64,000 bases of DNA from Bacilli bacterium (GCA_017409785.1 JAFQSD010000001.1:124001-188000); one strand, 5' to 3'; shown: positions 1,690-46,740, numbered from the stretch's first letter. Notes: generated by a model from the letters alone, not told the origin. Program-made: numbers and translations.

Positions 1690-4600
1690 ATGGAAGGAAA
1701 GAAAAGATACGTTGCCATAGTTCTATTTTTATTAATAGGATTAACGTTATTTACCTTCGCGAATCCTGTAGAAGAGGAAAAGGGTTCAAAAGGGAATGGT
1801 TCTAAAGATCCTGAAGTAACTGACAAAGATACAGTTGATGGTACTTTAGGAACTGATGAAGAACAAAATCAAGTTCAACCTCAAGTTCAAAACCAAGTTG
1901 CTGACAACTCTTATGCTAATGCATTAGCAGCAGTAGTAAAAGCTGAAGGTTCACTTGAAACACTTGATGTTGAAGCAGCTCGTGACTTAATTAATAGAGT
2001 TACAAATCAAAATCAAAAAGATGAATTAACAGAAAGATTAGATGTCGTTGAAGAAGCAATTGATGCTATCGAATTAGTTGAAACACTAGAAAAAATGGTG
2101 GAAGAAGCTACAGATAGAGATGGAATACTTGATTCAATCGATTATCGTACAGATGAAGAAATTATTCAAAAGGTAGATGCATTAAGAAATGAAGATGTTC
2201 AAGAAAGCTTAAAGGATCGCTTACAAATCTTAAGCAGAATACTAGATGATAATACTGCACCAGAATACGATGGTGTAGAAGATAACGAAATAACAAATAA
2301 AGATGTTTCTTTAACATATAGTGATACAGATGAAGAAACAGGAACAGAAAATGAAGTAACTGTTAAAGTAACACTAGATGGTGAAGAAATTGATTATGCT
2401 GAAACTTTCACTAAAGAAGGAACATATGTAGTAACACTTACAGATGAAGCATTCAATGAAACTACAGTAACATTCACAATAGATAAAACTGCAGCTAAGA
2501 AAAATGCAGTAAACGCAAATGTAAATGGATACAAAAATGAAGTTAAAGAACAATATGCTACAAACGGAAATAAAGTAACAGCATACATTTCTATTAATGA
2601 AGAATTAAAAGAAAATCCAACATTTACATTCTATACAAATGGAAAAAAAGTAGCAGTAGTTGCTAAAGAAGATGTAGTATTAAGCAATTCAAGCAATCCA
2701 GACTATCCATATGTATATACAGCAGTATTAAATATTAATGAAAGTCTAGTTGCTGAAGATGGAGTAATTACATTTACAGTTACAGACATTTATGATAAAG
2801 CTGGAAACAAAACAGCAGATATTACAAAAATGTCAGTAAATGGAAAAGTTCTAACATTAGATAGAACTCCAAATAGAGTAACATTCACATCTATTAAAAC
2901 AACAAATGATGCTGTTAGAGAAAATACATACTATGTAAAAAATGGTGATACTGTTACATTAAGAATTGGTTTCAGAGAAAAACTTGGAACTAATGCAGTA
3001 GTAAAAATTGGTGGAAGAGAAGCAACATTAACTTATGTTAAATACTTTGCTCAACCAAATCATCATGAATATACAGCAACACTAACAATTCCAGCTGATG
3101 AAACAGAATTAGCTGAAGGTGAATTATCATTCACAATTGAAAATGTTACAGATGAAGTTGGAAATAAAGGATTCTATTATCAAACAAATGGTAAGACAGT
3201 TCTTGAAACAATTACAAAAAATGTAACAACAAATGGTAAAAATGTTATCTATGATAGAACTGCACCAACTAGAAAATCTACAGACTTCTACGTAAGTGGA
3301 TTAACTCAAGTTGTAAAAACATTCTATACACAATATGGTAAGAAAGTAGTAGTTAACATTACTACAGATGAAGAATTAGCAGAAGTTCCTACATTTACAT
3401 TACATAACAATGGAAATGATTATGCAATGAACGATGCAATTTATAGAGGATTAAATGATAAAGGATATCATTTATATCAAGCTTCATTTGAAGTTACTGA
3501 AGAAACAGGAATGACAGATGGAGAAATTACATTTACAGTTTCTAATATCAAAGATATAGCTGGAAATGCAAGAGAAAATGTTACAGATGCAACTAATGGA
3601 AGACTAGTTGTATTAGATAACCAAGCACCATTAGTAGATAAATTAGCACTTGTTGGTGCAAATGGTGAATGGAACAAAAATAAAACTGAATATAAACAAT
3701 ATGCAAAAGTTGGAACAACAATTTATGTTAATGCAAGATTCTATGAAGAATTAGCAGGAACACCAGTTGTTACACTAAATGATAAAGTAACTTTAACAAA
3801 AGCTACAAAGAGACAAAGTGGAAATGTATGGATCTATTCATATAGTTATACAGTAACTGCAGAAGACGGATTAGTAGATGGACCACTTCAAGTTAAAGTA
3901 ACAAACTGCAAAGATTATGCAGGAAATTCAGTTGAATTAACAAATGCAAATGCAACAATGACATCTCAAAAAGATATCATTATTGATAAAACTGCTCCAA
4001 CATATGTAATCTATAAAGATGGTTTAAGACCAGTACAAAATGTTGAAACAGTTGAATTAAATGGAAAATTATATTTTAGTGATAATGCTGAAATTCAATT
4101 CCATGATAATTTAAGATTATCAACAATGATTGTAAATGATGGAAAACCATACACTACAACAGTAGGTGTTACTGGACAAATCAAATACGTAAGAGAAGAT
4201 GGAGAATATAAATATACTGTTAAAGACAGAGCTGGAAATGCTTTAACAATTACAGTTGTTAGAGATACAAAAGGTCCAGAAGTAACTCCAAGTTATGAAA
4301 CAAAAACAGTAGAAGCTGATAAGAATGGAACATTCGCTGACTTCCCAACATTCGAAGTTAAGGATGAACATAATCAACCAGTTTCACAAGAATTAGTATC
4401 TGGAGAAGTTAACTTAGGAAAATTAGGAGAATATGAATTAGTATACAAATTCACTGATTTCTTAGGAAATGAAACTACAAAAACAGTTAAAGTAATAGTA
4501 GTTGATACAACTGCACCAGTTGTTACCGCTAATCTTGATGAAAATGGTAACAAAGACATCACATTAGAAGCTGGTATCGATTCTTATAAAGAATTAGGTG

Positions 4601-6435
4601 CAACAGTAACTGATAATTTAGATGAAGATAGACAATTAGACAAGCCTTCATATATTAACCACTATACATTAGATGGTACATATACAGGAAGAGTTGCTGC
4701 AGTAGACACAACTAGAATTGGAAAATATTTATTAGTTTATGTTACTGAAGATGCAAATAAAAATACATCAAATAATCAATTATTACAATCAAAAAGATGG
4801 GTAATCGTTCAAGATACAATTAACCCAACATTAACAGTAAAAGATGAATCAGTTGGCACTGATCCATACTATAGTGCAATTAGTTTTGCATTAAGCGACA
4901 GTAATTTAATTGATTACGTTGAAGTAAATGGAGTTAAATTAGAAAGAGATAATGCTAAATGGAGTGATGCAAACTATCAAAACATCAAAGAACATTTAGT
5001 AGCTGGAAAAAACACTATCGTACTATATGATACTGCTGGTAATAAGACAGAAAAAACATTCTATATGGATTGGACTGCACCAACAGTAACAGCGTACAAC
5101 TGGTTAGGAGATAATCCATACAGAGGTGCTGATTTCAAATTAAGCGATAACTATGCAATTGATTACGTAGTAATTAATGGTGTAAAATTTGATAGATCAA
5201 ATGCAAAATGGGGAGACGCAAACTATGTAAACGTTAAGAATGCATTAGTTCACGGCGAAAACACAGTTGTATTATATGATGCAGCAGGAAATAGTGCTGA
5301 ATACAAATACAATTTTGATAGAAAAGCTCCAACAATTACAGTAAAAGATAGTTCAGTTGGGACAAATAGTATATATGGAGAATTAGATCTAAAATTATAT
5401 GATGAAAATGAAGTATCATCAGTAGTTATTAATGGAATACAATTACCACATAAAGGTCAATATGTAGACATTAATGATGGAGATGCATATACATTCCAAC
5501 ATGGCACTAATACAGTAGTTGTTACTGACAAAGCAGGAAATGTTACAACAAAAACATTCAATGTTACTAAATTTAATTTAGTAGTTGAAAATGGTGTTGC
5601 AAATTTAACAGAAGATGCAGTATTAATTGATAAACCATTCTACAACGAAATTGATACTGAAAATGAAGTTACAATTAATGGTAATGGAAAAACAGTTACT
5701 CAATATATTACATCAGTAGATAAAATGCAATGGAAGGGAAATCATACAACTCCAAATGGACTAAATATTCCATTACTTGCAAATGTATTCTCATCTAAAG
5801 CTGGACAAAAAGTAACAATTCATAATCTTACATTAACTGGAACAATGAATTCAGTAATGTTTGGAAATTATGAAGATGCAAGCAGTAATTGGTTCAATAC
5901 AGAATTAAATAATGTTAACATTACAAATGTAAAAGTTGTTTCATTATCAGGTGGTATTGCACCAGCAGCAGTTGTATATGGAAAAGCAACATTAAACAAT
6001 GTTAATATTTATGGAACAACAAGATCAGAATTAGAAAATTCTCCAAGTGATCCATATTGGCCTATATATGATTTAGCTGCAGTAAATTCATCAAATACTA
6101 CAATTAATGGTGGTAAAATTGGATCAATTTACTTATGGGCAAAAGCTGTTATGACAATTTCAAATGCAGAAGTTGATGTAATTGATACTTTAACAACAAC
6201 TGGACATTTAGAAATTGCAAACGGAACAACAGTTAACCGTATTAATATGAATGGAAATAATTCATATAAACCAGATGTAACAATCAAGGCAGGAGCAACT
6301 GTTAAAACATTAGATTTAACAAAAGTAACAAACATTACTGATATCGTTATTGAAGATGGAGCAACAGTTGAAACAATTCTAACATCTGGTGGAGAAATGA
6401 CATTAGATGCATGGAAAGCAGCTAACGGTAAGTAA
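1690..6435 (+). CDS. giant secreted surface protein with Ig-like repeats and beta-helix C-terminus
   Basis: Predicted exported protein of 1581 residues. Order: signal peptide (KKRY then a hydrophobic core, likely cleaved after TFA near residue 24); acidic Gln-rich linker; two alpha-helical modules (about 70-190) of the AxxAVxxAE...DVxxARxLI type; a series of bacterial Ig-like domains marked by recurring D(R/K/N)(T/Q)AP boundaries; a DUF5011-like domain near 930-1030; three tandem repeats of about 80 residues (1045-1290) each with (V/E)xNGVK..NAKW..AN; and a C-terminal parallel beta-helix-like region rich in NNVNI/TINGG turns. I see no LPXTG motif, no C-terminal membrane segment and no S-layer homology domain, so the anchoring mode is unknown. 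Large segments match the next giant protein almost residue for residue. Ribosome binding site is AGGAGGG. Probable adhesin or surface-coat protein (inference). Confidence 0.85.
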   Translation: MEGKKRYVAIVLFLLIGLTLFTFANPVEEEKGSKGNGSKDPEVTDKDTVDGTLGTDEEQNQVQPQVQNQVADNSYANALAAVVKAEGSLETLDVEAARDLINRVTNQNQKDELTERLDVVEEAIDAIELVETLEKMVEEATDRDGILDSIDYRTDEEIIQKVDALRNEDVQESLKDRLQILSRILDDNTAPEYDGVEDNEITNKDVSLTYSDTDEETGTENEVTVKVTLDGEEIDYAETFTKEGTYVVTLTDEAFNETTVTFTIDKTAAKKNAVNANVNGYKNEVKEQYATNGNKVTAYISINEELKENPTFTFYTNGKKVAVVAKEDVVLSNSSNPDYPYVYTAVLNINESLVAEDGVITFTVTDIYDKAGNKTADITKMSVNGKVLTLDRTPNRVTFTSIKTTNDAVRENTYYVKNGDTVTLRIGFREKLGTNAVVKIGGREATLTYVKYFAQPNHHEYTATLTIPADETELAEGELSFTIENVTDEVGNKGFYYQTNGKTVLETITKNVTTNGKNVIYDRTAPTRKSTDFYVSGLTQVVKTFYTQYGKKVVVNITTDEELAEVPTFTLHNNGNDYAMNDAIYRGLNDKGYHLYQASFEVTEETGMTDGEITFTVSNIKDIAGNARENVTDATNGRLVVLDNQAPLVDKLALVGANGEWNKNKTEYKQYAKVGTTIYVNARFYEELAGTPVVTLNDKVTLTKATKRQSGNVWIYSYSYTVTAEDGLVDGPLQVKVTNCKDYAGNSVELTNANATMTSQKDIIIDKTAPTYVIYKDGLRPVQNVETVELNGKLYFSDNAEIQFHDNLRLSTMIVNDGKPYTTTVGVTGQIKYVREDGEYKYTVKDRAGNALTITVVRDTKGPEVTPSYETKTVEADKNGTFADFPTFEVKDEHNQPVSQELVSGEVNLGKLGEYELVYKFTDFLGNETTKTVKVIVVDTTAPVVTANLDENGNKDITLEAGIDSYKELGATVTDNLDEDRQLDKPSYINHYTLDGTYTGRVAAVDTTRIGKYLLVYVTEDANKNTSNNQLLQSKRWVIVQDTINPTLTVKDESVGTDPYYSAISFALSDSNLIDYVEVNGVKLERDNAKWSDANYQNIKEHLVAGKNTIVLYDTAGNKTEKTFYMDWTAPTVTAYNWLGDNPYRGADFKLSDNYAIDYVVINGVKFDRSNAKWGDANYVNVKNALVHGENTVVLYDAAGNSAEYKYNFDRKAPTITVKDSSVGTNSIYGELDLKLYDENEVSSVVINGIQLPHKGQYVDINDGDAYTFQHGTNTVVVTDKAGNVTTKTFNVTKFNLVVENGVANLTEDAVLIDKPFYNEIDTENEVTINGNGKTVTQYITSVDKMQWKGNHTTPNGLNIPLLANVFSSKAGQKVTIHNLTLTGTMNSVMFGNYEDASSNWFNTELNNVNITNVKVVSLSGGIAPAAVVYGKATLNNVNIYGTTRSELENSPSDPYWPIYDLAAVNSSNTTINGGKIGSIYLWAKAVMTISNAEVDVIDTLTTTGHLEIANGTTVNRINMNGNNSYKPDVTIKAGATVKTLDLTKVTNITDIVIEDGATVETILTSGGEMTLDAWKAANGK
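4825..5560 (+). repeat. three tandem ~80-codon repeats inside surface protein 1
   Basis: Units begin near 4831, 5075 and 5329. Each starts with APT(I/V)TV or PTLTVK, contains a VVINGV/VEVNGV strand and ends VLYD(T/A)AGN. One further copy lies in the paralogous protein near 9408-9640. Confidence 0.75.
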
Positions 6436-6440
6436 TAAAA

Positions 6441-6470
6441 AAGAAGACTTGAAAAAGTCTTCTTTTCTTT
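6441..6470 (+). terminator. intrinsic terminator
   Basis: AAGAAGACTT-GAAA-AAGTCTTCTT (6441-6464) followed by TTCTTTT; follows the first giant surface protein. Confidence 0.9.
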
Positions 6471-6521
6471 TATATAAATGTATGCTAAAATGATTATGTA
6501 AGATAAAGGAGTGTGGCGCCT

Positions 6522-6917
6522 GTGGCATACATGAAACTAAAAGAACTAACAAAATATTTTGATTTTAAACATGAAATGGATATTAGAGATTTACCATTCT
6601 ATGTAATGGAATATATTAATCAAGGAGAAAAGATTTTACTTGCATATAAAACAGCAAGAGATCATGCTGTATTTACTGATCAAACTATGATTTTATTTGA
6701 TAGAGATGTTATGGGAACATATAAGAAAATTCATATTATTCCATATCCATCAATTTCAACAAGTGCCATTTGTTTTAAACCTGGTAAAGCAGAACTTTTA
6801 CTTTCGTTAGATAGTGGATATCAAGTAAGACTTGTTTTCGTAAATATGCATCATGAGAAAAAAGAACATTTAAAAGTTGCCTACAAAGCGATGATGAAGA
6901 AATCAGTAAAAGCCTAA
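6522..6917 (+). CDS. bacterial PH-domain protein
   Basis: Small soluble protein of about 131 residues that looks like a single bacterial pleckstrin-homology (bPH_1-type) domain: beta strands GEKILLAYKTARDHAVFTD, MILFDRDVMGTYKKIHIIPY, ISTSAICF and AELLLSLDSG, then a final helix (HEKKEHLKVAYKAMMKK). The role of this family is poorly known. Several starts are in frame (GTG 6513, GTG 6522, ATG 6531). AAAGGAG at 6505-6511 lies about 10 nt before GTG 6522, so I prefer that one. Lying between two giant surface-protein genes but bounded by terminators, it is probably a separate transcript. Confidence 0.7.
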   Translation: MAYMKLKELTKYFDFKHEMDIRDLPFYVMEYINQGEKILLAYKTARDHAVFTDQTMILFDRDVMGTYKKIHIIPYPSISTSAICFKPGKAELLLSLDSGYQVRLVFVNMHHEKKEHLKVAYKAMMKKSVKA

Positions 6918-39986: not shown

Positions 39987-40568
39987 ATGTACTACAAAAA
40001 CCTATATAGAAAAGAAATGATTAAGAATATAGTTATTGGTGGAATAATCCTATTTATTGCTGTATTCTCAACATATCATATATATTATTCATTTAATGAT
40101 ACAAAAGAAATTGATTATAGTTCTACATCATTAGATGTCACATTTCATGAAGAAACTGGAGAGGAATTAAATATCACAAAAATAACTCCATTACGTGATA
40201 ATGTGGCTTTATCATCTGCTGATAGCCACACAATCACAATAACTAATAACTTAACTGAAGAAGTTAATTATAAAATAAAGATTGTTGATAATATAGAAAA
40301 GATTGAAGAACAAGATTGTAAAGGAATCACAATCCCACGCGAAGAAATCAGAGTTTCAATTAAAGCACCAGGTAAAAAAGTAAAAATATATAGCTTATCA
40401 GAAATTGAAGATGGTGTTTTACTATCACACAAAGCAAAAGCCTTAGAAGAAACAAAATATACAATAAGACTTTGGGTAAAAGATGAAACAAATATTAATG
40501 GAACAGATTACCATTATCATGGGTTAATTCAAGTAGTTGAAAATGATACAACACTAGCTGTTAAATAG
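39987..40568 (+). CDS. membrane-anchored extracellular protein, unknown function
   Basis: 193 residues. One N-terminal membrane segment (about 14-33: NIVIGGIILFIAVFSTYHIYY) followed by an extracellular beta-sandwich-like region containing SSTSLDVTFHEETGEELNITKITPLRDNVALSSADSHTITITNNLTEEVNYKIKIVDN, which resembles Ig-like or camelysin-like surface modules. No catalytic motif. It sits 14 bp ahead of the DUF177-rpmF operon with no terminator between, so it may be co-transcribed with ribosomal genes. Ribosome binding site AGAGGTG. Confidence 0.65.
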   Translation: MYYKNLYRKEMIKNIVIGGIILFIAVFSTYHIYYSFNDTKEIDYSSTSLDVTFHEETGEELNITKITPLRDNVALSSADSHTITITNNLTEEVNYKIKIVDNIEKIEEQDCKGITIPREEIRVSIKAPGKKVKIYSLSEIEDGVLLSHKAKALEETKYTIRLWVKDETNINGTDYHYHGLIQVVENDTTLAVK

Positions 40569-40582
40569 AAAAGAGGAATCTT

Positions 40583-41062
40583 ATGGATATAGATTTAAGT
40601 TTATTACATAGTGGTACAGTACCAGAAGTAGATATAACAAATACATATACGCTTACAAAAGAGTATTATGAAAATACTGGAGTACTAGAATTAAAAGACA
40701 TAAAAGTAGAAGGAAAGATATATCGTGGAGCCGCAGAAGATGATATTGATGATTTTCAAGACTATGTTAATTGTAAAATATCAGGAACTATGATTATTGA
40801 GGATTCTATTTCTTTAGACCCTGTAGAGTATCCATTTTCGACAGAATATGATGATATTCTTGAAGAAAATTGCAAAAAAAATGAAAATACACTTGATATA
40901 TTTCAGTTTTTGTGGGAGAATATTGTACTAGAGATCCCCTTACAGTTTACTAAGGTTAAAGATCTCAGTAAATTTCATGGGGATGGATGGAAACTGATTA
41001 GAGAAGATGAATTAACTGCTTCTAACAATCCATTTAGTGATTTATTAAAAGATTTTAAATAA
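40583..41062 (+). CDS. yceD: DUF177 protein, YceD family, probable 23S rRNA accumulation factor
   Basis: 159 residues. The family pattern is visible: N-terminal [24 protein letters not shown], central VEGKIYR, the strand [26 protein letters not shown], and an acidic C-terminal part. Its position directly before the L32 gene is the classical genomic context of YceD/DUF177, a factor needed for large-subunit rRNA accumulation. Two Cys (VNC..., EENC) stand where some members have a zinc-binding set, but only partly. Ribosome binding site AGAGGAA. Confidence 0.85.
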
Positions 41063-41076
41063 AGAGGAGTGATAAT

Positions 41077-41286
41077 ATGATGAGATTAGACATTCAAATG
41101 TTCGCTGTTCCTTTCCGTAAAGTTTCAAAAACAAGAAAGAGAATGAGAAGAAGTCACAATGCTATGGAAGTTCCTGGTATGGCAAAATGTCCAAGTTGTG
41201 GTGAAATGATTAAACCACATAGAGTTTGTCCAAAATGTGGAAACTATAAAGGAAATAAAGTAGTAGAAGTAAAAGATGCTGAATAA
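41077..41286 (+). CDS. rpmF: 50S ribosomal protein L32 with N-terminal extension
   Basis: 69 residues. The core [50 protein letters not shown] is ordinary zinc-binding (C4) L32. Most L32 proteins begin M-AVP; here eight residues, MMRLDIQMF, precede AVP. The motif LDIQMFA parallels LDIQLFA of the L27 in this window, whose leader is removed by Prp in relatives. The AAAGAGGAGTGA ribosome binding site (41061-41072) is correctly spaced for ATG 41077 and no ribosome binding site precedes the internal ATG at 41098, so the extension should be translated. Located after DUF177. Regulation: shares the operon with it. Confidence 0.93.
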
Positions 41287-41299
41287 GCATCTTTTTTTT
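41271..41299 (+). terminator. intrinsic terminator after rpmF
   Basis: AAAAGATGCT-GAATA-AGCATCTTTT (41271-41295) plus T. The rpmF stop codon begins in the loop. Confidence 0.9.
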
Positions 41300-41303
41300 G
41301 TTC

Positions 41304-41332
41304 TAGACAAAAAAACACTATAATGATAAACT
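41304..41332 (+). promoter_or_regulatory. promoter of pseudopilin cassette 1
   Basis: TAGACA (41304-41309), 17-bp spacer ending TGA, TAAACT (41327-41332). The same layout is conserved before cassette 2, including GACAA and ATGATAAA. Confidence 0.6.
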
Positions 41333-41362
41333 TTATGTATAGTATAAAGATAGGTGAGTAAA

Positions 41363-43573
41363 ATGAAGGTGTTTAAGAACAAAAAAGGGTTTACTTTAGT
41401 TGAATTACTTGTAGCAATCTCTATTATGGGAATTATTATGGTAATTGCCTTGCCACAAATAAGTAATATCCAACAAAGTAATAAAAAGACAAAATATAAA
41501 AAATATGCAGAGTCAATGCTATCAAGTGCTAAACTATATACTGATTCTTATACGGAAGATATGTTTGGAAACAATACAAGTGGATGTGTTGATGTCTTAT
41601 ATGCAGATTTAAAAGACAAGGATTTATTAAAAGACATTAAAGTAGATGGCTCAACTTGTTCATCAGAAGATACTTTTGTTAGAATAAGAAAAGCTAACGA
41701 CCATTATTTTTATGATACATCTATATATTGTACAGATAAAAACAGAAAAGTTGTATATGATGAACGTTTAACACGCGGAGCATGCGAGGGCGAAGGACCA
41801 GATGTAGAGGGTCCAAAAATTAAAATCACTCCAAATTCTAAAGGTTGGACAAAAGGAACTGACGAAAAAATAACAATCAAGATTTGGGATGAATATGGAA
41901 TGTTGGAAAATGCTAAAGTTCGTCTAACTTGGACAAAAGATGGAGTTGCTTATGGCACACCAACAGAAGTAAGTTTTAAAAATAAAAGATATGATGGGGA
42001 AAGTGAAGAAAATGCTATAAAGCATGAAATAACTGTTCCCCAAAATGAAACTGGAATATTTGTTTTAACAGTATCGCCAGTTGACGTAAGAGATTCTCTT
42101 GGTAATTACATCCTAACGAACGTAGTATCAGGAGAATATAAATTAGATAATCAAAAACCTATAATAACCGGACATACGAATGATAGTGATAGTGTATGGG
42201 TAAACAGAGATGTTAAAATAACAGCTCAAGCCGACGATTATTCTCGTTCGGGAATAAAGCAAATATATTATTACTATACAGAAACAGATAAAAAGACTGA
42301 TTGGGATACTCAGAGTCCTAAGTCATCAGTTGTAGGAACATGGACAGCTGAAAGAAATCAAGAAGTATTTGTAATTGCTAAAGATTATGCTAATAATTAC
42401 TCTGATCCAGTATCAGTAGGTTATGTAAAAATTGATAAGACAAAGCCAGAGGTATCTAATGTAACAAATACCAAAAAAAATACTTGGACAAATGGAAATG
42501 TAGCAATTACTGCAACTGCAGCAGACAAGGGAAGTATAAAATCTGGAATAGATGCATCTTATTACTACTACACAGAAACAGATAAAAAAACTGATTGGGA
42601 TTCTGATAGTACAGCTACATCTATAAAAGGAACATGGTCAGCTGAAAGAAATCAAGAAGTATTTATAATTACTAAAGATAAAGCGGGAAATTATTCTGAC
42701 CCAGTATCAGCGGGAAAAGTAATGATTGATAAAACAGAACCGGTTGTAACGGGAATAAGTAATCCAAAAAATGGAGTAAAAACAATTGCTGGATTACAAG
42801 TAACTCTATCAGGTGAAGAAAGAGGAACAACCGTATCTGGTATATCAAAATGGCAATACAAAGAAGGAAGCGGATCATGGACAGACATTGCTAACTCTGG
42901 TTATTCGCCATATGTTGATACATTTACACAAATAAGAGCTGCAACAACATTCTCATATAGAATTTGTGACGTAGCAGGGAACTGTTCTGATTCGCAAGAC
43001 ACAGTAGTTGAAATTGTAGAACCTTGTTCTTCAACAACCGCAGTTAATTGTGGTGCTTGGGCCTGGTCAGACTGTACAGCAACCTGTGGCGGTGGAACAC
43101 AATATGAATCTCGAACATGTAGCTTAGCTTCAGCATATGATGAATCAATTTCTTGTCCAGGAACAACAACCCAAACTCGAAATGAAGGATATTCATGTAA
43201 TGCACATGATTGTTGTGGATGGACATGGACTGACTGGGGTGAATGGGGTGGTTGTGATGCCACTTGCGGCTGGGGTAACCGATATAAATATGGAACAAAG
43301 TATAGCCACTATAATAATCAAGATTGTGGAAGCGATTCAACATATGAAGCTTGTGATGCAGGTTCTTGTGAACCACCACCACATGAACATGATTGGAATT
43401 GCCGAGACACACAAAGTCCATATGGGGTAAGTTTTAAATGGGATTGTACCGCAGGACATAAAGATCATACATCTGCATTCGGTATTGTGTGCTGTACATG
43501 TGGAGCTGCAAAAACATTTAGTGCAACATTATGGTGTCCGGACAATTATACTCCACCGGTATTTGGCGGGTAA
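41363..43573 (+). CDS. type IV prepilin-like protein with Ig-like and thrombospondin type 1-like modules
   Basis: 736 residues. Prepilin leader KNKKG followed by FTLVELLVAISIMGIIMVIALPQI, with the Glu at +5 needed for pilin assembly and methylation. Then a pilin-like stem (to about 130), two or three Ig-like domains with YYYYTETDKKTDWD repeats, and from about residue 562 two Cys-rich modules. The first, WAWSDCTATCGGGTQYESRTC, fits the thrombospondin type 1 consensus WSxCxxxCGxGxxxRxRxC; the second is CGWTWTDWGEWGGCDATCGWGNRYK. The C-terminal Cys/His-rich part ends CCTCG...LWCPDNY. Expected to be an extracellular tip or adhesin component of a pilus-like fibre. No pilus motor or prepilin peptidase gene is in the window. 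Start is ATG 41363 after TAGGTGA, not the GTG inside it. Next gene starts 11 nt downstream. Confidence 0.85.
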   Translation: MKVFKNKKGFTLVELLVAISIMGIIMVIALPQISNIQQSNKKTKYKKYAESMLSSAKLYTDSYTEDMFGNNTSGCVDVLYADLKDKDLLKDIKVDGSTCSSEDTFVRIRKANDHYFYDTSIYCTDKNRKVVYDERLTRGACEGEGPDVEGPKIKITPNSKGWTKGTDEKITIKIWDEYGMLENAKVRLTWTKDGVAYGTPTEVSFKNKRYDGESEENAIKHEITVPQNETGIFVLTVSPVDVRDSLGNYILTNVVSGEYKLDNQKPIITGHTNDSDSVWVNRDVKITAQADDYSRSGIKQIYYYYTETDKKTDWDTQSPKSSVVGTWTAERNQEVFVIAKDYANNYSDPVSVGYVKIDKTKPEVSNVTNTKKNTWTNGNVAITATAADKGSIKSGIDASYYYYTETDKKTDWDSDSTATSIKGTWSAERNQEVFIITKDKAGNYSDPVSAGKVMIDKTEPVVTGISNPKNGVKTIAGLQVTLSGEERGTTVSGISKWQYKEGSGSWTDIANSGYSPYVDTFTQIRAATTFSYRICDVAGNCSDSQDTVVEIVEPCSSTTAVNCGAWAWSDCTATCGGGTQYESRTCSLASAYDESISCPGTTTQTRNEGYSCNAHDCCGWTWTDWGEWGGCDATCGWGNRYKYGTKYSHYNNQDCGSDSTYEACDAGSCEPPPHEHDWNCRDTQSPYGVSFKWDCTAGHKDHTSAFGIVCCTCGAAKTFSATLWCPDNYTPPVFGG

Positions 43574-43584
43574 TAGGAGGATAT

Positions 43585-44088
43585 ATGAAAGTAAAAAAAT
43601 TAATAATATTTTTAATAGTCATCTCCATATCATTAATTGGGATAGGAACAGTATATTCGGTTTATACAAAAGAACCAACAGAAAAAAAACAAATAGATGA
43701 AGAAGAAAAGTCAGATAAACCAACTGAGCCGAATGATCCTGAAAACCATAAAATAACAGAACTAAAAAGTGTTATAACTCCGGATAAAAAATTAAGATTA
43801 GGAACAACCAGAGTTTATGAATATGAAGGACTAACGGGAATGATGCTAAATATCGTTCCATTAGAAGACTTTGCAAATATCTATTTAAAAATAACAATGC
43901 AATTAGCAAAGTCAAAAGAAGATGTAGTTATTCACTTAGAAAACCTTCAAAAAGGAATCCAAGTAGAACGTGAAATTCAAACTCTAAATGATTGGTCTAC
44001 GCTAAAATCTTGGTCTATAGAAATTATTCCAGAAGAAGAAGCAAAAAAAATATGGGATAGTCAAAGTAAAGAAAAGTCAACTGAATAA
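43585..44088 (+). CDS. small membrane-anchored partner of pseudopilin 1
   Basis: 167 residues. One N-terminal membrane segment (about 4-25: KLIIFLIVISISLIGIGTVYSVY), a Glu/Lys/Pro-rich linker (30-55) and an extracellular beta-rich domain (RVYEYEGLTGMMLNIVPLEDFANIYLKITMQL). No known family. It overlaps no gene but starts 11 nt after the pseudopilin stop behind a strong TAGGAGG site, so it is co-translated. The same arrangement recurs in the second cassette, suggesting a structural or tethering role for the pair. Confidence 0.72.
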   Translation: MKVKKLIIFLIVISISLIGIGTVYSVYTKEPTEKKQIDEEEKSDKPTEPNDPENHKITELKSVITPDKKLRLGTTRVYEYEGLTGMMLNIVPLEDFANIYLKITMQLAKSKEDVVIHLENLQKGIQVEREIQTLNDWSTLKSWSIEIIPEEEAKKIWDSQSKEKSTE

Positions 44089-44098
44089 GTTGACTTTT
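44072..44098 (+). terminator. intrinsic terminator of cassette 1
   Basis: AAAAGTCAACT-GAATA-AGTTGACTTTT (44072-44098). The stop codon TAA begins in the loop. Confidence 0.88.
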
Positions 44099-44129
44099 AT
44101 CTTTAATAAAAATAATTTAATTTGTATTA

Positions 44130-44158
44130 TGGACAATAAAATCATAAAATGATAAAAT
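44130..44158 (+). promoter_or_regulatory. promoter of pseudopilin cassette 2
   Basis: TGGACA (44130-44135), 17-bp spacer ending TGA, TAAAAT (44153-44158); similar to the promoter of cassette 1. Confidence 0.6.
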
Positions 44159-44189
44159 TAAATAGTATAGAAAAAAGATAGGTGATATA

Positions 44190-46208
44190 GTGGCAAAGTT
44201 TAAAATTAAAAGTAAAAAGACAAAAACTAAAGGATTTACATTAGTTGAATTACTAGTAGCAATATCAATAATGGGAATAATATTGATAATTGCCTTACCT
44301 CAAATAAGTAATATCCAACAAAATAATAAAACAACAAAGTATAAAAAATATGCAGAGTCAATGCTATCAAGCGGAAAATTATATACAGATGCATATACAG
44401 AAGATATGTTTGGTAATAACCAAAGTGGATGTGTAGACATTACCTACAATGAAATGAAAGAAAAAGACTTATTAAAAGAAATAAAAATAAGTGGTTCAAC
44501 GTGTAATTCAAACAAAACATTTATTCGTGTAAGAAAATCAAATAATCATTATCTATATGAAACATCAGTATACTGTACAGATAAAAACGGAAAAGTAGTT
44601 TATGAAGATACTATTCCTGGAGTATGTATTGATGGACCAGACGTAGATGGACCAATAATTGAATTTGATGGTAATGGTTCTGACTGGACAAAGGGTACAG
44701 GATTAACTACAAAGATTCTTTTGTATGATGATTTTGGATTACTTGAAAATGCTAAAATTCAATATGCTTGGTTTAAAAGTGGTGCAATTCAAGGAGAGTG
44801 GACAACAAAAGATTTCCAAAATAAGCGTTATGAAGGAACATCAACAGCAAAGTTAAGCGTCACAGTTACAGTTCCACAAGGTGTATCTGGACAATATGTC
44901 TTAAAGGTTAAACCAGTAGATGTTAGAGATTCAAATGGAAACTGGCTATCAACAACAGCTGAGTCAAATCCATTTAAATTAGATAATACTAAGCCAAACT
45001 GTGGTACAAACGATGGAAGTAATGTATGGACAGCATCAAACAGAACTATTAGTGTAAATTGTAGCGATTCTCATAGTGGATGTGTTAAATCATCATACTC
45101 AACAACATATAATTCGGGAACAACAATAACAGATAGTGTAACAATATCAGATAAAGTAGGAAATACTAATGTTTGTTCTTACGATGTATACGTAGATAAA
45201 GAAGCACCAACAACACCAACTAGTGGTTCAATTGGAACAGTAAGTGGTAACAATCCAGCAGCATCAATTGCAACAGCAGCTGGTGGTTCAGCAGATGTAA
45301 ACTCAGGATCAGGATTAAGCGGATATCGTTACTTAGTAACAAACAGCTCAACAACACCAACAAATAAATCATTATTTACATCATCACTTGCCTTCACAAG
45401 AAGTTGTGGTACATCATATTATGGATGGGCAATAGCAGTAGATAACGTTGGAAATATGTCAGGGGTTTACTCATTAGGAAATACATCTGATGGTGCAGAC
45501 GTATATGATGCAAATTGGGGAGCATGTACTAAAAAATGTGGTACAGGATATCAATACAAATACAATACCTGTGCTTTAAAAGATACCTTAACACAAAAAT
45601 GTAATGAACAAACATGTTGCTCAAAAACAGAACCAACTAATTGTGGTTCATGGTCATGGACATCATGTACAGCAAGTTGTGGTACTAGTGGAACTAAATA
45701 TGAAACCAGAACATGTGATCTTAAATCAGCATATGACGGTTCAGCATGTTCAGGAACTATAACTCAAACACAAAGCGAAAATACAGAATGTAATCGTATA
45801 GATTGCTGTTCTTCAACAAAAATAGGTAGTTATGGAGACTGGGGAAGTTGTGATAAAACGTGTGGTCCAGGAACTCAATACCGTGACGTTTATTTGGTTT
45901 CAGCATATAATTCTTCGGTTTCATGTGGTAAACGAAGTACGCAAGACTCACAAAGTTGCCAAATTTCAGTATGTGAGCACACTCATAAATATGGAGGCTC
46001 ATATGGAGCACTTACTGAAAACTATGTAAACTATTGGGCAGACACAGTAGGTTATGGTTTCTCATATAGTAACTGTACACATAGTAAAGATGCCAATGGT
46101 AATGGAAACGGATATCACAGTATATCATCTGGACAAACAATTTATAGAAGACAATGCGTAATATGTGGTTATCATAATAATGTTATCTGGTGTCCAAATG
46201 GATATTAA
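44190..46208 (+). CDS. second type IV prepilin-like protein with thrombospondin type 1-like modules
   Basis: 672 residues, paralogue of the protein at 41363. Leader KTKTKG followed by FTLVELLVAISIMGIILIIALPQI; the first 140 residues are nearly the same as in the paralogue. Then Ig-like domains, and three Cys-rich modules: WGACTKKCGTGYQYKYNTC (about 444), WSWTSCTASCGTSGTKYETRTC (about 486) and YGDWGSCDKTCGPGTQYRD (about 547). The C-terminal domain has many His/Cys and ends QCVICG...VIWCPNGY, matching the ending of the paralogue. GTG start at 44190 is chosen because ATAGGTGAT precedes it and there is no ATG upstream or before the leader. Probable fibre tip subunit or adhesin (inference). Confidence 0.85.
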   Translation: MAKFKIKSKKTKTKGFTLVELLVAISIMGIILIIALPQISNIQQNNKTTKYKKYAESMLSSGKLYTDAYTEDMFGNNQSGCVDITYNEMKEKDLLKEIKISGSTCNSNKTFIRVRKSNNHYLYETSVYCTDKNGKVVYEDTIPGVCIDGPDVDGPIIEFDGNGSDWTKGTGLTTKILLYDDFGLLENAKIQYAWFKSGAIQGEWTTKDFQNKRYEGTSTAKLSVTVTVPQGVSGQYVLKVKPVDVRDSNGNWLSTTAESNPFKLDNTKPNCGTNDGSNVWTASNRTISVNCSDSHSGCVKSSYSTTYNSGTTITDSVTISDKVGNTNVCSYDVYVDKEAPTTPTSGSIGTVSGNNPAASIATAAGGSADVNSGSGLSGYRYLVTNSSTTPTNKSLFTSSLAFTRSCGTSYYGWAIAVDNVGNMSGVYSLGNTSDGADVYDANWGACTKKCGTGYQYKYNTCALKDTLTQKCNEQTCCSKTEPTNCGSWSWTSCTASCGTSGTKYETRTCDLKSAYDGSACSGTITQTQSENTECNRIDCCSSTKIGSYGDWGSCDKTCGPGTQYRDVYLVSAYNSSVSCGKRSTQDSQSCQISVCEHTHKYGGSYGALTENYVNYWADTVGYGFSYSNCTHSKDANGNGNGYHSISSGQTIYRRQCVICGYHNNVIWCPNGY

Positions 46209-46229: not shown

Positions 46230-46718
46230 ATGAAAAATAAAAAGACAATAATAACAATCATTGTACTTGCATTAATCGTTATAATAACTGGTGTATTATT
46301 GATTGTGTTTAGTGATGAACAAAAGCCATCTGATAAAAAGATAAAAGAGGCACAAGAAACAACAAAAGAAGTTGTTGATGGTGATATGACAAATATCCAA
46401 GAGTCACTAAAAAAACAACATATATATAAAGATTACAGAATTAAATCATTAGCGATTTCTGGAGGAGAAGGTTTCTATATGTTATCATTTACAGTTGATA
46501 ATATTTCAGAAAAAAATTTAGAGAAGCAAAAAATTAATATTGCTTTTCTTGATAGTAATAAAAAACAAATTTCTGAAGTAAATGTAGAAATACCTGCATT
46601 ATCATCAGGAGAAAGTCAACACGTGTATTACGACGGATTAAGTGAAAAAGCCTTTAATTATGCTTTTGATTATAAAATATCAAAAGCTAAAGAAGCATCT
46701 CTTCCAAACAAAGAATAA
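46230..46718 (+). CDS. small membrane-anchored partner of pseudopilin 2
   Basis: 162 residues. N-terminal membrane segment (about 6-26: IITIIVLALIVIITGVLLIVF), charged linker, and a beta-sandwich-like domain (YRIKSLAISGGEGFYMLSFTVDNISEKNLEKQKINIAFLDSNKKQISEVNVEIPALSSGES) with the look of FxLYD-type extracellular modules. It shares position, size and topology with the protein at 43585 but little sequence. Starts 21 nt after the pseudopilin stop with AAGGAGG. Function unknown. Confidence 0.72.
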   Translation: MKNKKTIITIIVLALIVIITGVLLIVFSDEQKPSDKKIKEAQETTKEVVDGDMTNIQESLKKQHIYKDYRIKSLAISGGEGFYMLSFTVDNISEKNLEKQKINIAFLDSNKKQISEVNVEIPALSSGESQHVYYDGLSEKAFNYAFDYKISKAKEASLPNKE

Positions 46719-46740
46719 AAGCCTTAACAAAGGCTTTTTT
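46717..46740 (+). terminator. intrinsic terminator of cassette 2
   Basis: AAAAGCCTT-AACA-AAGGCTTTT (46717-46738) plus T tract. Confidence 0.9.

What the first reader, a model, noticed from the sequence alone, without database searches (positions are those of the whole stretch)
41363..46208. Pseudopilins carrying thrombospondin type 1-like modules
Both proteins begin with a classical prepilin motif (G then FTLVELLVAISIMGII) and contain two or three Cys-rich modules matching the TSP1 pattern WxxCxxxCGxGxxxxxRxC (for instance WSDCTATCGGGTQYESRTC and WTSCTASCGTSGTKYETRTC). TSP1 repeats are chiefly known from animals and apicomplexans, where they bind glycans. A pilus-borne TSP1-like adhesin in a probable gut Firmicute would suggest host-glycan binding. 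Contamination is unlikely since the modules are in frame with bacterial parts and occur twice.
Basis: partly seen in the sequence, partly recalled or inferred. Interest (0 to 1): 0.78.

Follow-up and report, generated by a model that had tools for sequence, protein, structure and literature searches.

The report
Giant pilins with thrombospondin-type tip modules
A gut bacterium carries giant pilus subunits whose outer ends are built from thrombospondin type 1 modules, a fold best known from animals and malaria parasites, followed by a tip domain that is exchanged between genes together with a small partner gene, which looks like a swappable adhesive pilus tip.

Summary
Two ORFs (41363-43573 and 44190-46208) are type IV prepilins (N_methyl over cut-off) with two and three thrombospondin type 1 repeats (TSRs; PF00090 41 and 35 bits, cut-off 21.6). 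AlphaFold gives the TSR pair pLDDT 95, and Foldseek returns properdin and thrombospondin-1 first. These are modular type IV pilins rather than pseudopilins: the genome has assembly ATPase, PilC-like protein, prepilin peptidase and 11 N_methyl genes. Order: pilin helix and domain, Ig-like stalk, TSRs, Cys-rich cap. Sampled Bacillota show TSP_1 only in this family (19 of 291 genomes); other prokaryotes have TSRs in non-pilin proteins.

Each window pilin heads a two-gene unit ending in a small bitopic membrane protein. Caps and these partners vary together, independently of the pilin moiety: pilins 71-81% alike at the N-terminus can have unrelated caps, while pilins 30-34% alike share cap (41-45%) and partner (37-51%). 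Best reading: pilus-borne adhesins with exchangeable tips, the TSRs a disulfide-rich spacer or accessory binding surface. Host-glycan binding is untested; this window's TSRs are acidic to neutral, which speaks against heparin. Ligand, expression and pilus incorporation remain unproven.

The parts
41077..41286 (+). rpmF (ribosomal protein L32), host marker gene just upstream; not part of the system
   Evidence: translation is L32-like; follows YceD ORF 40583-41062
41271..41295 (+). intrinsic terminator separating rpmF from the pilin unit
   Evidence: 6 terminator-like sites found, 1.8 expected
41304..41332 (+). promoter-like site (TAGACA-17-TAAACT), weak
   Evidence: promoter-like matches in the region are not above shuffles, so only indicative
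41363..43573 (+). modular pilin W1 (736 aa from ATG; 739 aa from GTG 41354)
41375..41452 (+). W1 prepilin cleavage site and N_methyl helix
   Evidence: PF07963 36.0 bits, position
41816..43051 (+). W1 chain of Ig-like beta domains (stalk)
   Evidence: AlphaFold full-length model, strands between model residues 147 and 558; Foldseek matches are Ig/Fn3 chains
43025..43213 (+). W1 TSR 1, group-1-like cysteine pattern plus an upstream Cys pair
   Evidence: PF00090, model
43214..43369 (+). W1 TSR 2, group-2-like cysteine pattern (upstream Cys, no Cys after the Arg strand)
   Evidence: PF00090; Cys positions; model
43370..43570 (+). W1 C-terminal Cys/His-containing cap, no family match, low-confidence model
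   Evidence: weakly similar to the cap of the paralogue at G000:C2:15476-17911
43585..44088 (+). W1 companion: bitopic membrane protein (167 aa), ATG preceded by AGGAG
44072..44098 (+). terminator after the W1 unit
44190..46208 (+). modular pilin W2 (672 aa, GTG start)
44223..44297 (+). W2 prepilin cleavage site and N_methyl helix
45525..45617 (+). W2 TSR A (short type)
   Evidence: Cys pattern
45618..45806 (+). W2 TSR B (group-1-like)
   Evidence: Cys pattern
45807..45974 (+). W2 TSR C (group-2-like)
   Evidence: PF00090 / PF19030
45975..46205 (+). W2 C-terminal cap, related to the cap of an orthologue in a second species (35% over 94 aa)
46230..46718 (+). W2 companion: bitopic membrane protein with weak FxLYD-like domain
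   Evidence: NCBIfam FxLYD_dom 20.6 bits, below its cut-off of 23
46717..46738 (+). terminator after the W2 unit

Best explanation
W1 and W2 are modular type IV pilins that present a multi-domain adhesive arm on the cell's pili. The prepilin peptidase cleaves the leader, the alpha1 helix packs into the pilus (probably at or near its tip), a chain of Ig-like domains acts as stalk, one to four TSRs follow, and a Cys-rich cap ends the arm. Cap and downstream bitopic membrane protein form a cassette that recombination moves between pilin genes, so that the tip changes while the pilin moiety is kept; the partner most likely helps fold, stabilise or load its cap. The TSRs are most likely a disulfide-stiffened distal spacer that may also bind protein or glycan ligands at the mucosa or on other microbes. 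Shown by computation: domain identities, fold, machinery in the genome, gene organisation, module exchange, cap-partner association. Inferred: pilus incorporation, tip position, disulfides, adhesion, role of the partner.
For: Prepilin motif and TSP_1 over cut-off. Machinery in the same genome: PilB-type ATPase, PilC-type T2SSF next to a prepilin peptidase, 11 N_methyl genes. AlphaFold: long alpha1 helix (model residues 7-63), beta domains, TSRs. TSR fold matches. Even Cys number in 19 of 22 complete TSR pilins, as expected if cysteines pair. Module exchange: W2 matches a pilin of the other locus in a sister species over 761 bp of stalk and TSRs (68.6%) while its N-terminus matches a different pilin class. 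Cap and companion: all three pairs of similar small-partner companions are also cap-similar pairs, e.g. 45% cap and 51% companion against 30% N-terminus. Published precedents: Streptococcus sanguinis PilB and PilC (PMC8179133, PMC9934059).
Against: No experiment; no expression data. The cap is predicted with pLDDT under 50, so nothing is known of its fold or ligand. The cap-companion link rests on three pairs found after the fact, and one (g2a/L103) may partly reflect orthology (N-terminus 41%). Many homologous giant pilins lack TSRs, so TSRs are not essential to the plan. No VKOR or Thioredoxin_4 oxidase was found in this genome, so the source of disulfides is open.
Confidence: 0.6

Rival explanations
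1. TSRs are the binding modules and recognise host glycosaminoglycans or mucin glycans.
For: Animal and apicomplexan TSRs often bind heparan sulfate (general knowledge); S. sanguinis PilC, another modular pilin, binds sialylated glycans and heparin oligosaccharides through its lectin module (PMC9934059). Close relatives come from animal gut: goat cecum, water deer colon.
Against: Window TSRs are acidic to neutral (W1 -4, -4; W2 0, -3, +1); the family mean is only +0.9; number and presence of TSRs vary while the cap is always distal.
Confidence: 0.2
2. TSRs are a purely structural spacer; only the cap binds, and the ligand may be microbial or dietary rather than host.
For: TSRs sit between stalk and cap; copy number 0-4 among homologues; the cap is the most exchangeable part; TSRs have diverse surfaces and charges.
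Against: No data on ligands of either part; conservation of the TSR core fits a spacer as well as a binding module, so it does not discriminate.
Confidence: 0.35
3. The proteins stay in the membrane as surface proteins anchored by the uncleaved helix and never enter a pilus.
For: Very large for pilins; genes are far from the pilB, pilC and pilD loci.
Against: Canonical prepilin cleavage motif with Glu5, prepilin peptidase and assembly machinery in the genome; the modular pilin PilB of S. sanguinis is modelled as compatible with the pilus tip despite its bulk (PMC8179133).
Confidence: 0.12
4. Eukaryotic contamination or a misassembled chimera.
For: TSP1 is mainly known from eukaryotes.
Against: TSP_1 in 14 genera of the family, mostly in frame with a prepilin N-terminus; conserved synteny with rpmF; 518-kb contig.
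Confidence: 0.01

Closest known systems
Modular type IV pilins, e.g. Streptococcus sanguinis PilB (vWA) and PilC (Ig + ConA-like lectin) (PMC8179133, PMC9934059)
   Same: N-terminal class III signal and pilin module with grafted functional modules; monoderm host; PilC also has an Ig-like module before the binding module; the minor pilin PilA stabilises PilC, an analogue of a partner protein.
   Different: Here several Ig-like domains, then tandem TSRs, then a Cys-rich cap; 400-1000 aa in all; cap exchanged together with a bitopic partner gene. TSP1 is not mentioned in the main text of that survey; its supplementary list of 264 architectures could not be read here, so the TSP1 architecture may be listed there.
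Thrombospondin type 1 repeats (PF00090; group 1 as in thrombospondin-1, group 2 as in F-spondin and TRAP)
   Same: CxxxCGxG core, six-Cys pattern, aromatic residue before the first Cys, predicted three-strand fold; closest solved sequences thrombospondin-1 and properdin.
   Different: Adjacent CC linkers, extra upstream cysteines, reduced Trp/Arg ladder, carried on a bacterial pilin.
BspA-type LRR pilins of the same genome (G000:C3, L061)
   Same: N_methyl prepilins of about 680 aa with a grafted repeat domain (PF13306).
   Different: LRR solenoid instead of Ig/TSR/cap; not followed by a small bitopic partner.

Membership tests
TSP_1 / TSR domain (PF00090) | score over the curated cut-off | tested here: met
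   41.2 and 35.1 bits against 21.6
TSP_1 / TSR domain (PF00090) | three-strand elongated TSR fold | tested here: met
   AlphaFold pLDDT 94.8, top Foldseek matches properdin and thrombospondin-1; single TSR 2.4 A over 47 residues to BAI1 TSR3, Z 5.5, supportive only because such a Z is modest
TSP_1 / TSR domain (PF00090) | three disulfides C1-C5, C2-C6, C3-C4 (group 1) or the group 2 pattern | tested here: inconclusive
   Cys positions fit both groups and parity is even; bond geometry could not be read, no coordinates
Type IV pilin / prepilin | class III signal: short leader, Gly, hydrophobic helix with Glu5 | tested here: met
   GFTLVELLVAISIMGII, PF07963 and TIGR02532 over cut-off
Type IV pilin / prepilin | prepilin peptidase, assembly ATPase and PilC-type platform in the genome | tested here: met
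Type IV pilin / prepilin | incorporation in a filament | not testable with these tools
   needs pilus preparation and mass spectrometry
Modular pilin (sense of PMC8179133) | pilin module plus a domain not specific to pilus biology | tested here: met
   TSP_1 and Ig-like chain
Modular pilin (sense of PMC8179133) | grafted module directly mediates a pilus function | not testable with these tools
   binding not assayed
Type II secretion pseudopilin (GspG-K) | match to a Gsp pseudopilin equivalog over its cut-off | tested here: not met
   GspG, H, I and J matches are far below cut-off and cover only the N-terminal helix

The most novel reading that the evidence does not exclude
A family of gut Bacilli displays pili with exchangeable tip cassettes: a variable Cys-rich cap plus its dedicated membrane partner is swapped among giant pilins whose arms contain animal-like TSRs, giving a switchable repertoire of adhesins, with the TSRs themselves binding host or microbial ligands.
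Probability: 0.3. Interest if true: 0.78.

Novelty: new variant of a known kind. Interest (0 to 1): 0.62.

Why it matters
It puts a fold regarded as a hallmark of animal matrix and apicomplexan adhesion proteins on a bacterial pilus, in uncultured gut bacteria whose surface interactions are unknown. The cap-partner pairing gives a direct, testable model of how pilus tip specificity could be changed. The Cys-rich pilins also raise the question of how bacteria without a recognised oxidase form disulfides outside the cell.

Tried and rejected
Contamination: rejected (fusion in many genera, synteny). Phage or plasmid origin: tblastn of the TSR region gave no match in 50,697 phage and 72,556 plasmid records. 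VKOR and Thioredoxin_4 oxidases: none in this genome; other oxidases not searched. The A1 alignment was too variable for a collection scan, so a conserved TSR subtype (A3) was used, which biases the named hits to that subtype. The Foldseek search of the full-length model is dominated by Ig/Fn3 chains and says little beyond 'Ig-like stalk'. No family match for the caps. An animal-like O-fucosylation motif (CxxS/TCG) occurs in 32 of 54 family TSRs, but no enzyme was looked for. A TSR tree to settle transfer from eukaryotes was not attempted: the repeats are short and no eukaryote set was available. Papers: no open-access paper found on TSP1 pilins; subscription papers and supplements were out of reach.

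Full report
Observation. ORFs 41354-43573 (W1; the probable start is the ATG at 41363) and 44190-46208 (W2) carry a prepilin N-terminus and TSP_1 matches over the curated cut-off. By cysteine pattern W1 has two thrombospondin type 1 repeats (TSRs) and W2 three. The TSR region of W1 finds human thrombospondin-1 and properdin by sequence (phmmer 1.7e-7). AlphaFold on an alignment of 17 TSR regions gives mean pLDDT 94.8, and Foldseek returns properdin and thrombospondin-1 first. Single TSRs superpose on BAI1 TSR3 at 2.4 A over 47 residues (Z 5.5); that Z alone would be weak, but it agrees with sequence and Foldseek.

Two TSR types. One follows the thrombospondin-1 (group 1) pattern; the other lacks the Cys after the Arg strand and has an upstream Cys, as in F-spondin and TRAP (group 2; my reading, from general knowledge of the two groups). 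A paralogue in the same genome passes the cut-off of Pfam's spondin-type TSP1 model (42.1 against 41 bits). Neighbouring repeats are joined by CC, which would serve as the last Cys of one and the first of the next. The number of cysteines in the mature protein is even in 19 of 22 complete TSR pilins, as expected if all are paired; the sequences are related, so this is not 22 independent trials.

Organism and machinery. The window is part of a 1.5-Mb MAG-like assembly. The closest named relatives are Bacilli MAGs from goat cecum and water deer colon. The genome has a PilB-type ATPase, a two-domain PilC-type protein beside a prepilin peptidase, and 11 N_methyl genes. Besides W1 and W2 there are two more Ig-type giant pilins at C2:15.5-21.3 kb, next to polC, and two with BspA-type LRRs on C3.

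Distribution. TSP_1 occurs in 19 of 291 genomes of the family (14 of 150 genera). In samples of the class (4 of 395) and phylum (2 of 392) every positive genome belongs to this family. Nearly all family members with a complete N-terminus are prepilins. A named-genome scan also found TSRs in Woesearchaeota, Paceibacterota, Elusimicrobia and Mailhella, there without a prepilin motif. So TSRs are scattered in prokaryotes, while TSR pilins look like a speciality of this family. Whether TSRs came from eukaryotes was not resolved.

Architecture. The full-length W1 model (mean pLDDT 75) has an alpha1 helix at residues 7-63, a pilin beta domain, a chain of Ig-like domains, TSRs, and a C-terminal cap under pLDDT 50. 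The full-length Foldseek matches are Ig/Fn3 chains.

Gene organisation. rpmF ends at 41286 with a terminator at 41271-41295. W1 is followed by a bitopic membrane protein (43585-44088) and a terminator at 44072-44098; W2 is followed by another (46230-46718) and a terminator at 46717-46738. Terminator-like sites exceed the shuffled expectation (6 against 1.8); promoter-like sites do not.

Module exchange. W2 matches a pilin of the polC locus in a sister species over 761 bp of stalk and TSRs (68.6%), while its N-terminal region matches yceD-locus pilins (76-80%); W1 matches the polC-locus paralogue over 324 bp of stalk (71.6%) but not at the N-terminus. Pilins 71-81% identical at the N-terminus can have unrelated caps, whereas g0d (G000, polC locus) and g2b (G002, yceD locus), 30% alike at the N-terminus, share a cap (45%) and a companion (51% over 247 aa), and G001 and G110 pilins of different genera (34% N-terminus) share a cap (41%) and a companion (37%). 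All three similar pairs among the small companions are cap-similar pairs. The sample is small and the test was made after the pattern was seen.

Function. The published modular pilins of Streptococcus sanguinis are adhesins, and its minor pilin PilA stabilises the lectin pilin PilC (PMC8179133, PMC9934059). By analogy I infer that the arm is a pilus-borne adhesin, that the cap is the chief recognition part, and that the companion serves its own cap. No VKOR or Thioredoxin_4 oxidase was found in this genome, so how disulfides form is open.

Verdict. The feature is real, and the modules are true TSP1 domains on modular type IV pilins. It is a new variant of a known kind, of fairly high interest, with the exchangeable cap-partner cassette as the most original and most testable part.

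Noticed in passing
G000:C3:36000-46000 (L061:2410-4446 and 4532-6562, minus strand): Two adjacent 676-678 aa prepilins carry BspA-type leucine-rich repeats (PF13306); a similar pair is present in a sister species (L069).
   Followed up: partly
L062:6299-9601: The pilus ATPase ORF has a tail of about 690 aa, very rich in Glu, Gln and Thr, after the T2SSE domain, with no family match; open-frame length differs among relatives (614 to 1111 aa within the genus).
   Followed up: partly
L071, L072, L074, L078, L079: Other giant prepilins of the family (760-1185 aa) have Cys-rich ends, and probably Ig-like stalks, without clear TSRs, so the stalk-plus-cap plan is wider than the TSR subset.
   Followed up: partly
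L112:728-1396: An 'uncultured bacterium' contig encodes at least five nearly identical group-1 TSRs in a protein without a prepilin motif.
   Followed up: no
L113, L115, L119: Woesearchaeota proteins contain TSRs; in L113 and L115 a fibronectin-type-III-like stretch (by eye) precedes them. Archaeal TSRs of unknown role.
   Followed up: no
window 39987-40568: A bitopic membrane protein (193 aa) precedes yceD-rpmF; an ORF of the same length is at the same place in a sister species (L068:2866-3447).
   Followed up: no
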